Translations under genes and position numbers: made by a program
From: Phycisphaerae bacterium
GTDB lineage: Bacteria; Planctomycetota; Phycisphaerae; Sedimentisphaerales; SM23-30
Reading direction: 5' to 3'
Length of the DNA stretch: 32,553 bases
Assembly: GCA_016342495.1 (NCBI GenBank)
Contig: JAEIOG010000060.1
Location: forward strand, 1 to 32,553
Shown: piece by piece, positions 7,468-27,462 of the stretch
Layout: every line of letters begins with the position of its first letter
Numbering within the stretch: position 1 is the stretch's first letter
The notes under the pieces: model-generated
The model's input: only the letters and a program-made list of their open reading frames with translations
The model's database searches: none
Told to the model about the DNA's origin: nothing

Positions 7468-8286
7468 ATGACGGAAAAAATGAAAAAAGCAGTTATTCTT
7501 GCCCGTGGCCTGGGAACTCGCATGCGTAAAGATGATGGTAATGCCAACGTTACTGGCGACCAGGCAGCCATAGCTGATCAGGGTGTAAAGGCCATGATCC
7601 CGATTGATCGCCCTTTTCTGGACTATGTAATGCATGCATTGGCTGAATCAGGTTATGAAAAAATTTGTTTGGTTATCGGCCCCGAACATGACGCGGTGCG
7701 TGATTATTACAATTCTATCGAATTGACCCGTCTTACCGTAGATTTTGCAATTCAGGCCAAGCCTTTAGGTACTGCCGATGCCGTTGCTGCTGCTCAGGAA
7801 TTTGCTGGTAATGACCCGTTTTTAGTCATTAATTCAGACAATTACTATCCAGTCTCAGCTTTCAAAGGACTCCGCAATATCGATGGACCAGGCCTGATTG
7901 GCTTTACCCGTGATGGTTTGCTATCGGGTGGCAATATCCCCGCTGACAGAATTAACGCTTTTGCCATCATTAAAACAGATTCCGAGGGTTTCATGGAAAG
8001 AATCGTTGAAAAACCTGATGATGCCACTATCGCTGCTATGCCCGAACCTCATTGCCTGAGTATGAATTGCTGGCGTTTTGGCCCGGAAATCTTTGAAGCA
8101 TGTAAAAATATCGAAAAGTCTGTTCGTGGTGAACTGGAAATTACCGATGCGGTAATGTACACCATCGAGAAATTGGGCCAAAAATACCATAATGTCATGG
8201 TTTCAGCCCCAGTTCTGGATCTTTCCAGTCGTGGCGATATCGCTTCGGTGGTTGACCAGCTAAAGGGCTCACCAGTTCAGTTATAG
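7468..8286 (+). CDS. Sugar-phosphate nucleotidyltransferase
   Basis: Predicted to join a sugar 1-phosphate with an NTP to make an NDP-sugar, in the cytoplasm. The 272-residue protein has the NTP_transferase fold with nucleotide loop LARGLGTRM (about 10-18), a lysine block GVKAMIPIDRPFLDYV, the PLGTADAV motif that holds the base and sugar, and the metal-binding block FLVINSDNYYP, where many relatives have NGD. The loop carries ARG in place of the common AAG. The start at ATG 7468 follows AGAAAGG at about eight bases; an in-frame TTG at 7447 is less likely. There is no C-terminal left-handed helix, so it is shorter than GlmU or GlgC enzymes. The sugar cannot be assigned. The gene is followed by a strong terminator and stands alone. 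Confidence 0.8.
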   Translation: MTEKMKKAVILARGLGTRMRKDDGNANVTGDQAAIADQGVKAMIPIDRPFLDYVMHALAESGYEKICLVIGPEHDAVRDYYNSIELTRLTVDFAIQAKPLGTADAVAAAQEFAGNDPFLVINSDNYYPVSAFKGLRNIDGPGLIGFTRDGLLSGGNIPADRINAFAIIKTDSEGFMERIVEKPDDATIAAMPEPHCLSMNCWRFGPEIFEACKNIEKSVRGELEITDAVMYTIEKLGQKYHNVMVSAPVLDLSSRGDIASVVDQLKGSPVQL

Positions 8287-8310: not shown

Positions 8311-8338
8311 AACCCCAGCTTCGAGTTGGGGTTTTTTA
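8311..8338 (+). terminator. Rho-independent terminator after the nucleotidyltransferase
   Basis: AACCCCA pairs with TGGGGTT, extended by three inner pairs around a TCG loop, and a run of T follows. It begins 24 bases after the stop codon. Confidence 0.88.
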
Positions 8339-12486: not shown

Positions 12487-13485
12487 ATGAATAGCTATGA
12501 AAGATATATCGCAATGGTCAAAGGCCAAAAGGTCGATTTTGTCCCACGGATTCCTATATTGATGCATTTCGCTGCCGACCATATTAATGCTTCTTATGCA
12601 GATTTTGCCAGTGACCATAAAGTGATGTGCAAGGCAGGCATCGAATTAGCTAATGACTTTGGAATTGACCAGCTGGATATTTTAAGCGATCCTTATCGTG
12701 AGACCACAGCCTGGGGCGGCAACATCACTTATGTTCAGGATACCACACCTCGTTGCAGCTCACCTTTACATGACAATAAGGATTTTTCCCTGTTGGCAAA
12801 ACCCGATATTTACCAGTCGGAACGCTTGAAAAATGCCCTGGATGGCATAGACCTGTATAAAGAATCTGGCTATAAGAAATATTCGATTACTGGCTGGGTC
12901 GAAGGCCCTGCCGCCGAAGCTGCCGACCTCAGGGGTGTTCAAAATTTCCTGATGGATTTAATGCTGGATGAATCTTTTGCATGTGAGCTGATGGACAGGG
13001 CATTAATTTTAGCGATCAACTTTGCCAAAGCCCAGATCGCCCATGGCTGTGATACTATTGGCATTGGCGATGCCATTGCCAGCCAGGTTGGACCTGATTT
13101 ATATGAACGATTAATTCTCCCGCGCGAAAAAATTCTTATCGATGCTGTCCAGGCCGCCGGCGGTCTGGCTCGTCTACATATCTGCGGCAATGTTACCAAG
13201 CTCCTCCCGGCTATCGCCAGTCTTGAAATAGATATTATGGATTGCGACTGGATGGTTGATATGGTCCAGGCCAGAGAGATTCTAGGTTCAAAGGTAACAC
13301 TTACCGGCAATCTTGACCCGGTAAGTGATATTATGCGTTCGACACCAGCAAAAATACATGATAGTTTCAAACAGCTTTATGCCCAGATCGGTAACCCGTA
13401 TTTTGTCAATGGCGGCTGTGAAATCCCCAGGGGTACTCCGGTTGAAAATCTTAAGGCTGTTTGTGAACCAATTCCGGCACAATAA
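12487..13485 (+). CDS. UroD-superfamily zinc methyltransferase (MtaA/CmuA-like)
   Basis: A TIM-barrel protein of 332 residues from the uroporphyrinogen decarboxylase superfamily. It carries the zinc motif of corrinoid methyltransferases, H231-x-C233 (LHICGN) with C311 (NGGCEIPRGTPVEN), which true HemE lacks. It also lacks the HemE N-terminal signature. This points to methyl transfer between a methylated corrinoid protein and a thiol or other acceptor, rather than heme synthesis. No corrinoid protein or partner methyltransferase is adjacent. AAGCAGGG six bases before ATG 12487 supports the start. The gene lies 21 bases upstream of the Gfo/Idh gene and is probably cotranscribed with it under the divergent AraC regulator. 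The methyl donor is unknown. Confidence 0.8.
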   Translation: MNSYERYIAMVKGQKVDFVPRIPILMHFAADHINASYADFASDHKVMCKAGIELANDFGIDQLDILSDPYRETTAWGGNITYVQDTTPRCSSPLHDNKDFSLLAKPDIYQSERLKNALDGIDLYKESGYKKYSITGWVEGPAAEAADLRGVQNFLMDLMLDESFACELMDRALILAINFAKAQIAHGCDTIGIGDAIASQVGPDLYERLILPREKILIDAVQAAGGLARLHICGNVTKLLPAIASLEIDIMDCDWMVDMVQAREILGSKVTLTGNLDPVSDIMRSTPAKIHDSFKQLYAQIGNPYFVNGGCEIPRGTPVENLKAVCEPIPAQ

Positions 13486-24880: not shown

Positions 24881-25217
24881 AGACCGGGGGATATTGGGCT
24901 TTCCAAATTATGATTACATATTAGGCCATTTCGGTAAGGTTGGCCCATATTGATTGATTTAAGTAGTAGCTTGTTTAGGCATGTCGATAAATCGGGTACG
25001 CCAAAGGGTACCAAACGACACTTTTTCTACCAATAATTACACTTTTTCCGATAAAATGTCAGTTTTTTGCAGGCATAAAAACCGAAATTTTAGTTTTTTA
25101 CTATGCTATTTATTTAAAAACACCCATCTTGTAGGCCCAGAATTCCCATTGGTTTAGTCGGTGTTTTTTTTGGGTACTTCTATTTTATTATTGCATATCA
25201 AGTACAATGATCTTAAA
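24881..25217. other. AT-rich spacer between hisS and the retron RNA
   Basis: No gene. It includes a GGCCA/TGGCC inverted repeat (about 24923-24944) and the terminator-like structure at 25116-25171. A retron promoter may be here; TATTAT at 25186-25191 has no clear -35 box. Confidence 0.5.
25116..25171 (+). terminator. Long-loop terminator-like structure upstream of the retron
   Basis: AAAAACACC (25116-25124) pairs with GGTGTTTTT (25160-25168), and the T run extends to 25171. The 35-base loop is long for a terminator. It could shield the retron from hisS read-through. Confidence 0.4.
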
Positions 25218-25340
25218 CTGAATTCACCTTGGCGTTGCTCAAATGCAGAGCACAGAGAGCTGATGTTTCGTCAGCCGGGTTCCAATTTTGGTTCCTTAAA
25301 GTTTTTGTATGGAGTCGCACTCCATAGCAAGGTATTTCAG
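25218..25340 (+). ncRNA. Candidate retron msr-msd RNA
   Basis: A complete retron RNA layout of about 123 bases. a1 (25218-25231, CTGAA TTC ACCTTG) pairs with a2 (25328-25340, CAAGGT AT TTCAG): 11 pairs around a small internal loop. Right after a1 comes GGCG, which resembles the branch region TTAGCG of Ec86; G25232 is the likely branch base. The msr has hairpin TGCTC/GAGCA (25236-25252) and hairpin GCTGATG-TTT-CGTCAGC (25259-25275), a 7-bp stem with the UUU loop typical of retron msr. The msd region (about 25276-25327) ends in a perfect 8-bp hairpin TATGGAGT/ACTCCATA (25308-25326). It lies 52 bases before the RT gene. The predicted cDNA is short, about 50 bases. Confidence 0.75.
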
Positions 25341-25374
25341 ATGCGGGTTTATTTTTTCCTGCATCTGATTTTTT
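25338..25374 (+). terminator. Terminator-like hairpin between msr-msd and the RT
   Basis: CAGATGCGGG (25338-25347) pairs with CCTGCATCTG (25358-25367), ten pairs including one G-U, around a U-rich 10-base loop, followed by ATTTTTTC. Its first three bases are also the last three of a2, so full a1/a2 pairing and this hairpin compete. It could attenuate RT expression relative to the RNA. Confidence 0.6.
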
Positions 25375-25392
25375 CATTCGAGGGATAAAAAT

Positions 25393-26298
25393 ATGGGTTT
25401 ATTTGATAAGATTAAAGGTTTATTTGGTTCTGGTAGTTCTGGTGGGGTGTCGGGACTGACGATTGACGATTTGGCACAGCGGTTGGATATGCCAGTTGAA
25501 CGGCTTGAGGGTGTGGAAATATCATATCATAGTTTTACGGTTCCAAAATCTAATGGCCATCAAAGGCGGATAACTGCTCCTGATGATAAATTAAAACAGG
25601 TGCAACGTGCGATATTGAAGCGGCTGCTGAATAAGTTGGCGGTTCATCCTAATGCCACCGGTTTTCGCAAAGGATATTCAGTGGTTTCAAATGCGCGGCT
25701 GCATGTCGGGTCAGAGGTTATTGTAAAGCTGGATATCCGTAATTTTTTTGAGAGCACGAAAATTAATAGGGTGAACAAATATTTTAAGTTTATTGGCTGG
25801 GATAGAAAAACGGCAAATTTATTGACGGAGTTGACAACATATAAGGGCGGGCTGCCACAGGGGGCGCCGACGAGTTCGGCTTTGTCGAATTTATTGAATT
25901 ATAAGCTGGATAGCTCGCTTACTACGTTGGCGAAAAAAAAAGGGGCTCGCTATAGCAGGTATGCTGATGATATGACTTTTTCGCTGGATGGTTCTGATTC
26001 CAAGGTGATAAATTCGATTATCTGGGGAGCGGAATCTGCATTGCATGATTTGGGGTATCGGCTGAATAATCGCAAGACTAAAGTGATACGCAAGCATCGC
26101 CAACAGCGGGTGACGGGTTTGGTAGTTAATGAGAAGGTGGCGTTGCCGAGAAAAACGCGGAAGCTGATTCGGGCGATAGAGCATAGCCAACAAAATGGAA
26201 GGCCGAGTACGCATAGCGCAGATCAGCTTCGCTCGTTGAAAGCATATCAGGCGATGGTTGAAAAGCAGGGGGAAGATGGTGAATTGGATGAGGGTTGA
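25393..26298 (+). CDS. Retron-type reverse transcriptase
   Basis: A 301-residue RT that would use the upstream RNA as primer and template to make branched msDNA. Visible: the N-terminal RT0-like segment; the retron region X motif N100-A-R-L-H104; the RT2 motif with catalytic D114 (VKLDIRNFF); GLPQGAPTS (153-161); the active site Y190-A-D-D193; and the retron region Y motif V240-T-G242 leading into the thumb. NAxxH plus VTG distinguishes retrons from group II intron and DGR RTs. The first 12 residues (MGLFDKIKGLFG) could form an amphipathic helix. AGGGA lies upstream of ATG 25393. No fused effector domain is present. Codon choice looks richer in TTG and GCG than hisS, by eye. Confidence 0.93.
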   Translation: MGLFDKIKGLFGSGSSGGVSGLTIDDLAQRLDMPVERLEGVEISYHSFTVPKSNGHQRRITAPDDKLKQVQRAILKRLLNKLAVHPNATGFRKGYSVVSNARLHVGSEVIVKLDIRNFFESTKINRVNKYFKFIGWDRKTANLLTELTTYKGGLPQGAPTSSALSNLLNYKLDSSLTTLAKKKGARYSRYADDMTFSLDGSDSKVINSIIWGAESALHDLGYRLNNRKTKVIRKHRQQRVTGLVVNEKVALPRKTRKLIRAIEHSQQNGRPSTHSADQLRSLKAYQAMVEKQGEDGELDEG

Positions 26299-26369
26299 AT
26301 TTTGTAGTTTGACGGTGAAAAAGTGAGAAGGTGTGAGGTGTTCGCTTCGCTCATGAAATTTATATCAGC

Positions 26370-26384
26370 GTGGGCATGGCCCAC
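26370..26384. repeat. GTGGGC-ATG-GCCCAC palindromic repeat
   Basis: Six-base arms around ATG, preceded by ATCAGC, the inverse-orientation flank of the 23448 family. Confidence 0.7.
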
Positions 26385-26475
26385 CCTTGTTATCGCCGGT
26401 AGGTATGTTTGTTGTTCCGGCTACTTCGTATTTGCGATTGAGACAAAACATGATAACGGGATAGGTAGATGATTT

Positions 26476-26504
26476 ACCCAGCCTACCTGACTGGCGGGCT
26501 GGGT
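26476..26504. repeat. ACCCAGCC/GGCTGGGT hairpin
   Basis: Perfect 8-bp arms (26476-26483, 26497-26504) around 13 bases. The loop contains CTACCTGACT, which also follows the palindrome at 26669, linking the two elements. Confidence 0.65.
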
Positions 26505-26668
26505 TGCGGAGTTGCCTGCGGCAAAAGGTTTGGATTTTATTTTGCAGGTTGGGGCAGAGTCTGGGAAATGAATTTGCCCGCCCTTGGCTGACCGGCGATG
26601 TAAACGAAGCATTAAGCCTGCCACAGGAATATGATTGAAGATAAGGAAGAAAAGTTATTTTAAACAGC

Positions 26669-26689
26669 ATGGGCAGAGTAGCTGCCCAT
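26669..26689. repeat. ATGGGCAG/CTGCCCAT hairpin repeat
   Basis: Perfect 8-bp arms around AGTAG, preceded by CAGC and followed by CCTACCTGACT. It belongs to the 23448 family. Confidence 0.75.
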
Positions 26690-26752
26690 CCTACCTGACT
26701 AATAAATAAATTGGCAGAAATTAGTTGTTGGAGGAGATGGGATAAAATAGTG

Positions 26753-26765
26753 TGGGTACGGCCCA
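26753..26765. repeat. TGGG-TACGG-CCCA short palindrome
   Basis: A degenerate member of the ATGGGC/GCCCAT family with flank ATCGGGCT, as at 29417. Confidence 0.5.
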
Positions 26766-26831
26766 TCGGGCTATAGTTAGAAGCGACAGCGCGTGGGTGA
26801 AAAGGATAGAGTTAGCGTTTTGGGTGGGGAT

Positions 26832-26853
26832 GAGACAAGGCATGCCTTGTCTC
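26832..26853. repeat. GAGACAAGGCA palindrome, second copy
   Basis: A 22-bp perfect palindrome identical to the core of the element at 5546-5575, followed by TACA. Confidence 0.85.
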
Positions 26854-26901
26854 TACAGGGATTTAGTGTGAGTATGGGGCGTGATATTTTTTGTGTTTAT
26901 T

Positions 26902-27462
26902 TTAAGTATTGCGGGCATTGATGAAGTCTTTGAATTTACATGTCAGTTGTCGGAATATTTTTCGGGGCATGTTGACGGTTTGCCATTTTTCACTTCGGTC
27001 GGTCATGTGGCGGCAGTAAGCGGCTAGATCGAGTGTTGTGAAATAATAATATTTATTTTCATTTATAAAAAGGTCGCAAGCGGTTTGGGGGATAAAATCT
27101 TCAGGGATGTCAAAAATCCAGTAGGCAAAGACAAAAATCGCCAGGTAATCATCGGTTTTGTCGGCCCGGAAGATTTCCTGCCATTGTTGCATCGATTCGA
27201 TATCATCATTGGTGACCCAGTTTTCACCGTGTTTATTGTTATTGAAATCCTTGAAGGGTAATTTTCGGCCCTTGACATCAACTAAGATAATCGGCACACG
27301 ATTTTTGAAATGTTTTTTGGGGTAGACAATGAAGTCGAAACTTTTGAGGCTATTGCCAGCGAATAAGGCTTTATGTTGCTGGCTGACCGGGACATAGGGT
27401 AGCTGACAATGGTTTAGATAAGCTTCAAAGCTCTGTTCATAATGTTCGCCGCGTTTTGCCAT
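26902..27462 (-). CDS. HYExAFE-type protein with PD-(D/E)XK-like motif
   Basis: A 186-residue protein. The N-terminal GEHYEQSFEAYL matches the planctomycete HYExAFE family. D43 (SFDFIVYP) followed by V61-D62-V-K64-G-R looks like the D-Xn-(D/E)xK core of restriction-type nucleases, so a DNA-binding or nuclease role is possible. Function is unproven. No ribosome binding site is obvious at the start. It lies 38 bases downstream of tcdA on the same strand and convergent to the retron, about 600 bases from it. Confidence 0.65.
   Translation of the reverse strand: MAKRGEHYEQSFEAYLNHCQLPYVPVSQQHKALFAGNSLKSFDFIVYPKKHFKNRVPIILVDVKGRKLPFKDFNNNKHGENWVTNDDIESMQQWQEIFRADKTDDYLAIFVFAYWIFDIPEDFIPQTACDLFINENKYYYFTTLDLAAYCRHMTDRSEKWQTVNMPRKIFRQLTCKFKDFINARNT

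What the first reader, a model, noticed from the sequence alone, without database searches (positions are those of the whole stretch)
25328..25374. Competing a2 arm and terminator hairpin: a possible RT switch
The end of a2 (TTCAG, 25336-25340) shares CAG with the 5' arm of a ten-pair hairpin followed by a T run. Full a1/a2 pairing and the hairpin cannot both form. A retron RNA that terminates before its RT could set the ratio of RNA to RT, or respond to a1/a2 being consumed during reverse transcription.
Basis: partly seen in the sequence, partly recalled or inferred. Interest (0 to 1): 0.6.

Follow-up and report, generated by a model that had tools for sequence, protein, structure and literature searches.

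The report
Retron RNA with its own terminator

Summary
The hairpin is real: TCAGATGCGGG/CCTGCATCTGA (25337-25368, 11 pairs, one G-T) followed by six T, between a retron ncRNA (a1 25226-25231, a2 25328-25333) and its RT gene (ATG 25393). A covariance model of the a1-to-a2 part alone found further members across Planctomycetota. A downstream hairpin follows a2 almost directly (usually within 4 nt) and is significant in 46 of 50 ncRNAs (20 of 21 not used in training), with a T-rich tail (4.2 of 8 against 1.6 expected) and compensatory changes. So a terminator at the 3' end of the ncRNA is a conserved part of this retron clade. The competition is not conserved. In relatives the a1/a2 stem ends where the hairpin begins and both form together; the outer CTGAA/TTCAG helix is at chance, is energetically beaten, and probably lies in the -10 promoter box. 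No conserved antiterminator was found. Best model: an autonomous ncRNA unit (promoter at a1, terminator after a2) with the RT made by read-through, as in type III toxin-antitoxin and AbiF loci. The clade has no conserved neighbouring effector, and its RTs carry amphipathic or transmembrane N-termini. No expression data were available.

The parts
25191..25219 (+). Putative promoter of the ncRNA: TTGCAT (25191-25196), 17-nt spacer, TAAACT (25214-25219); predicted start near 25226
   Evidence: Weak by itself (3/6 and 4/6). Position supported by 52 upstream regions of relatives: TTGAC concentrated 45 to 38 nt before the GG that follows a1, -10-like A/T about 21-15 nt before it; the closest relative L091 has TATATT at the same offset as TAAACT. 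An alternative -10, TACAAT at 25203-25208, lacks a -35 and cannot be excluded.
25226..25231 (+). a1 (ACCTTG); its last G and the next base form the invariant GG, presumably including the branching G
   Evidence: Covaries with a2 over 7 columns, 94.5% of cells paired
25226..25333 (+). Retron ncRNA (msr-msd) from a1 to a2: two msr hairpins and an msd hairpin TATGGAGTCGCACTCCATA
   Evidence: CM R1 hit 25224-25335, 81.5 bits, E 3.7e-13 (the window is a training member); RNAalifold with compensatory changes in every helix
25328..25333 (+). a2 (CAAGGT)
25337..25374 (+). Intrinsic-terminator hairpin (25337-25347 / 25358-25368) and T run (25369-25374)
   Evidence: dG -17.8 kcal/mol alone; conserved by position and structure in 46 of 50 ncRNAs
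25380..25385 (+). Ribosome-binding site GAGGGA of the RT
   Evidence: Sequence; similar GA-rich sites before RT starts in relatives
25393..26298 (+). Retron reverse transcriptase, 301 aa, MGLFDKIKGLF N-terminus, NARLH, YADD and VTG motifs
   Evidence: PADLOC RT_XIII 6.7e-81, RVT_1, solved Ec86 RT 2.5e-37

Best explanation
The hairpin is a constitutive Rho-independent terminator that ends a compact, autonomous ncRNA transcription unit. Transcription starts at or near a1 (inferred from a conserved promoter) and runs through msr and msd. Most polymerases stop at the hairpin directly after a2 (inferred from the conserved hairpin plus T tail). A minority read through into the RT gene, which starts about 20 nt further on with its own ribosome-binding site (inferred: no room for a separate promoter in most loci). 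The result is many RNAs per RT, with the a1/a2 stem and the terminator hairpin side by side at the RNA's 3' end. Shown by computation: conserved position, compensatory changes, T tail, compatibility with a1/a2, lack of an antiterminator. Inferred: termination efficiency, read-through, excess of RNA.
For: Hairpin almost directly after a2 (mostly within -2 to +4 nt), significant in 26/29 training and 20/21 independent ncRNAs (model R1 used only a1-a2). T content of the 8-nt tail 4.2 vs 1.6 expected, Wilcoxon p 1e-9. Hairpin helices covary in the unguided alignment (88-94% of cells paired, all 8 pairs with two-sided changes). Conserved TTGAC promoter upstream of a1. Tandem ncRNA copies, L106 (G079) and L148 (G509), each with its own downstream hairpin; in L148 each also has its own TTGAC. 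RT start typically 41-75 nt after a2. Same strict terminator test within 300 nt upstream of RT: 11/28 in this clade, 2/73 in other retron RT loci. Precedents for the layout: type III toxin-antitoxin operons (PMC5086642) and AbiF/RCd22, where RACE, qRT-PCR and a reporter support termination and read-through (PMC12373285).
Against: No RNA data. Many GC-rich relatives have weak T tracts (for example L152, L158, L159, L101), so termination may be inefficient or the hairpin may also serve another role. In L181/L098 (G400) the ncRNA is divergent from the RT yet keeps the hairpin, so the hairpin is not there only to throttle the RT, and the RT there must have its own promoter. L106 copies and L110 are weak by the statistical test.
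Confidence: 0.77

Rival explanations
1. One reading: outer a1/a2 pairing (CTGAA/TTCAG) competes with the 5' arm of the hairpin, so the state of a1/a2 (for example its use in reverse transcription) controls termination before the RT.
For: The two structures do overlap by four bases (TCAG) in this window. If transcription starts upstream of 25218, the outer helix can form before the hairpin is made.
Against: Outer helix at chance in 50 ncRNAs and absent from L091. It costs 4.5 kcal/mol against the hairpin state and has ensemble probability of 0.01 or less. CTGAA overlaps the predicted -10 box. In relatives a2 ends where the hairpin begins. No conserved antiterminator. Termination is decided within seconds of transcription, before an RT could act on that molecule (general knowledge).
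Confidence: 0.03
2. The hairpin is mainly a 3'-end cap or RNP element (exonuclease barrier, RT docking, coaxial stack on a1/a2, processing site) and termination is secondary or done by Rho.
For: Flush with the a1/a2 stem; kept where the T tract is poor; kept in the divergent locus L181. RCd22 3' ends lie mainly just upstream of its terminator hairpin, so processing there is precedented.
Against: T enrichment is strong. Hairpin sequence is not conserved among AT-rich members, which fits a terminator better than a protein site.
Confidence: 0.13
3. Insulator: ncRNA and RT are separate units, the RT having its own promoter inside the ncRNA or hairpin region.
For: Divergent arrangement in G400 needs a separate RT promoter; some loci have more than 100 nt between hairpin and RT.
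Against: In most loci only about 20-40 nt lie between the hairpin and the RT start, largely the ribosome-binding site; no promoter-like site was listed there in the window.
Confidence: 0.07

Closest known systems
Retrons with msr-msd-ret order such as Ec86 (Retron-Eco1)
   Same: Upstream ncRNA with a1/a2 and GG after a1, retron RT with NAxxH, YADD and VTG; closest solved relative is the Ec86 RT
   Different: Described as one polycistronic cassette (PMC6868368; PMC8867640); no terminator between ncRNA and RT described in the papers read. No effector gene in the present clade.
Type III toxin-antitoxin systems (ToxIN, CptIN, TenpIN)
   Same: One promoter, RNA, Rho-independent terminator, then the protein that binds the RNA (PMC5086642)
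   Different: RNA here is a single retron ncRNA, not usually tandem repeats; the protein is an RT, not a ribonuclease toxin
AbiF_Cd / RCd22 of Clostridioides difficile
   Same: ncRNA of about 100-130 nt with SigA promoter and terminator, protein gene made by read-through (PMC12373285)
   Different: Unrelated RNA and protein families; AbiF is toxic, nothing here suggests that
PADLOC retron type XIII (best HMM hit of the RT)
   Same: RT domain, 6.7e-81
   Different: No conserved or PADLOC-recognised partner gene beside this RT clade; RT_X and RT_III-A follow, so the type is not settled

Membership tests
Retron (msr-msd-RT element) | Retron-type reverse transcriptase | tested here: met
   PADLOC retron RT models, Ec86 RT 2.5e-37, motifs NARLH, YADD, VTG in the sequence
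Retron (msr-msd-RT element) | Upstream structured ncRNA with a1/a2 inverted repeat and a conserved G at the end of a1 | tested here: met
   Covarying structure with invariant GG at the end of a1
Retron (msr-msd-RT element) | Production of branched msDNA | not testable with these tools
   Needs RNA/DNA extraction and sequencing
Retron (msr-msd-RT element) | Linked accessory/effector gene (tripartite defence retrons) | tested here: not met
   In 19 loci with neighbourhood sequence only the RT itself recurs beside the ncRNA; nearest downstream genes are housekeeping or varied and the ten scanned do not hit PADLOC. An unlinked effector cannot be excluded.
Retron type XIII (PADLOC) | RT of the type plus its specific partner genes | tested here: not met
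   Best RT model is XIII but no partner is shared or recognised
Intrinsic (Rho-independent) terminator | Stable GC-containing hairpin followed directly by a T run | tested here: met
   11 pairs, -17.8 kcal/mol, TTTTTT
Intrinsic (Rho-independent) terminator | RNA 3' ends in the T run | not testable with these tools
   No transcript data
Riboswitch or attenuator with alternative structures | Conserved antiterminator that excludes the terminator | tested here: not met
   Upstream pairing of the 5' arm no better than shuffles in 48 loci; outer helix at chance
Type III toxin-antitoxin layout | Promoter - RNA - terminator - protein, in one operon | tested here: inconclusive
   Met as a sequence layout; that it is one transcript with read-through was not tested. 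Homology to ToxN is not implied; the protein is an RT.

The most novel reading that the evidence does not exclude
A distinct clade of two-component, effector-less retrons, mostly planctomycete, in which a separately promoted and terminated ncRNA accumulates in large excess over a membrane-attached RT made only by read-through. The dosage logic is that of type III toxin-antitoxin systems, and the RT itself (or an unlinked partner) would carry the output.
Probability: 0.4. Interest if true: 0.7.

Novelty: new variant of a known kind. Interest (0 to 1): 0.5.

Why it matters
Retrons are described as one polycistronic transcript, in current work with a linked effector. Here is a clade in which the RNA has its own promoter and terminator and the RT probably depends on read-through, with no linked effector. 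This gives a simple way to keep template RNA in excess, a clear 3' end for the ncRNA (useful when such retrons are built for DNA production), and a search rule (msr, a2, terminator, MGLF-type RT) for finding more. It also poses a testable question: what does a retron without an effector, apparently held at the membrane, do?

Tried and rejected
Switch by a2/hairpin overlap: rejected. Pairing of a1 with the RT ribosome-binding site, seen in the minimum-energy fold of the read-through RNA: not clearly above shuffles in relatives (5.4 vs 5.0 bp), dropped. Rfam at gathering threshold: no match in the window. IMG/VR viral contigs gave only distant RTs, at most 39% identity, so the clade does not look phage-borne; the ncRNA model was run on only five of those loci, without a match. 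Other retron types searched with R1: clear match only in L013 (a member of the clade), weak matches in Chitinophaga retrons. Search for a shared effector: none. Paper searches for retron with rho-independent/intrinsic terminator or Planctomycetota found nothing on this clade; the library lacks most subscription papers.

Full report
The locus. The window carries a retron reverse transcriptase at 25393-26298 (+). Its best PADLOC model is RT_XIII (6.7e-81), and the closest solved protein is the Ec86 RT (2.5e-37). Upstream lies a structured RNA. The core a1 is ACCTTG (25226-25231) and the core a2 is CAAGGT (25328-25333). After three unpaired bases comes the hairpin TCAGATGCGGG-loop-CCTGCATCTGA (25337-25368) and TTTTTT (25369-25374), then GAGGGA and the RT ATG.

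Is the hairpin more than chance? Yes. No shuffle reaches its score, and the fold z-score of the region is -4.0. A scan of the whole window for stems of at least 10 pairs followed by T-rich tails finds three sites on both strands, against about 0.1 expected per strand.

Relatives. Protein searches gave about 40 RTs that form one group against 74 other retron RTs (one change on the tree, SH-aLRT 91, quick tree). They come mostly from Planctomycetota, with members in Sumerlaeota, Myxococcota and Hydrogenedentota. Upstream of nearly all of them is the same kind of RNA. An unguided MAFFT alignment folded by RNAalifold gives a1/a2, two msr hairpins, an msd hairpin and the downstream hairpin together; 29 of 34 pairs show two-sided compensatory changes. 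Counting pairs on that structure gives 92.5% paired cells against 76% in shuffles and at most 48% in slid versions.

Independent test. I built a covariance model only from a1 to a2 and searched samples of 392 genomes of the phylum and 397 of the class. The new hits were then examined downstream of a2. A hairpin better than shuffles (p at most 0.05) is present in 20 of 21 of them and in 26 of 29 training ncRNAs. The 8-nt tail after the hairpin holds 4.2 T against 1.6 expected from local composition (p 1e-9). Hairpin sequences differ widely among AT-rich members (window, L091, L108, L148, L149, L156, L157), so the structure rather than the sequence is kept. The one independent ncRNA clearly without hairpin, L185 in G390, has no RT beside it and none of this kind in that genome.

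No competition. In relatives the a1/a2 stem (mostly 6-10 pairs) ends where the hairpin begins. The outer helix seen in the window is no better than chance there (p 0.13) or elsewhere (3 of 50 loci at p<0.05). In the window the a1/a2 core and the hairpin form together with high probability in the terminated transcript (0.87-0.98 and 0.89-1.0). Forcing the outer helix costs 4.5 kcal/mol. The 5' arm has no conserved alternative partner in the ncRNA (mean -14.0 vs -14.2 kcal/mol in shuffles). So an attenuation switch of the usual kind is not supported.

Promoter. Aligned on the GG at the end of a1, 52 upstream regions show TTGAC concentrated at -45 to -38 and a weaker A/T-rich -10 near -21 to -15. 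This puts the start of transcription at or near the first base of a1. In the window TTGCAT-17-TAAACT has about the expected position, and the closest relative L091 has TATATT at the same offset as TAAACT. The CTGAA of the outer helix would then be promoter DNA and not RNA. The window's promoter is weak by consensus, and a second candidate (TACAAT, 25203-25208) would include CTGAA in the RNA, so this step is inferred.

Autonomous unit. Two genomes have tandem ncRNA copies, L106 (G079) and L148 (G509), each followed by its own hairpin; in L148 both copies have their own TTGAC. In G400 the ncRNA lies upstream of the RT in the opposite direction and still has the hairpin. The hairpin thus belongs to the RNA. 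In the common arrangement the RT starts 41-75 nt after a2 with a ribosome-binding site and no room for a separate promoter, so read-through is the likely source of RT.

Comparison. Reviews describe retrons as a single polycistronic cassette (PMC6868368; PMC8867640). The promoter-RNA-terminator-protein layout is known in type III toxin-antitoxin systems (PMC5086642) and in AbiF/RCd22, where it was examined by RACE, qRT-PCR and reporter (PMC12373285). As a rough control, terminator-like hairpins within 300 nt upstream of the RT occur in 2 of 73 other retron loci and in 11 of 28 of this clade under one strict rule; the ncRNA positions of the other loci were not determined, so this is only suggestive.

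No linked effector. Across 19 loci with neighbourhood sequence, no gene family other than the RT recurs beside it. Nearest downstream neighbours include MnmG, CutC, a nitroreductase and a histidine phosphatase; ten downstream neighbours gave no PADLOC hit. The RT N-terminus is MGLF-type (29 of 39) or has a predicted transmembrane segment (8 of 39). Start codons were chosen partly by the MG motif, so the first count is biased upward; the transmembrane cases mostly do not depend on that choice.

Verdict. The switch is not. The result is a new variant of retron organisation; it still needs transcript mapping.

Noticed in passing
window 25393-25430 and RTs of relatives: RT N-termini are amphipathic (MGLFDFLKNLF-like, 29 of 39) or carry a transmembrane segment (8 of 39, e.g. 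L014, L107, L108, L110, L148, L155, L157, L161), suggesting a membrane-attached retron RT. L014 lies among MGLF-type RTs in the tree, so the anchor was probably swapped more than once.
   Followed up: partly
window 26299-27462 and 18 further loci: No effector gene is shared next to this RT clade; the window's next gene (26902-27462, -) is a HYExAFE family protein.
   Followed up: yes
L106 (G079:C52:138236-138510) and L148 (G509:C212:13286-13649): Tandem ncRNA copies before one RT, each with its own downstream hairpin.
   Followed up: partly
L181 / L098 (G400:C288:2090-3148): ncRNA divergent from its RT, hairpin kept; short contig, so a misassembly is possible.
   Followed up: partly
L185 (G390:C44:7008-7114): Orphan ncRNA match without hairpin and without a related RT in a 99% complete genome, perhaps a relic.
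   Followed up: partly
L199:9043-9591 and L207 (same genus): A 2'-5' RNA ligase superfamily (LigT-like) gene starts 5 nt after the RT; notable because retron msDNA has a 2'-5' branch, but it was seen in one genus only.
   Followed up: partly
window 25226-25392: In the predicted fold of the read-through RNA, a1 pairs with the RT ribosome-binding site instead of a2; not clearly enriched in relatives.
   Followed up: yes
window 8311-8333 (+) and 13298-13327 (-): Other strong terminator-like hairpins; the first lies just after the ORF ending at 8286.
   Followed up: no
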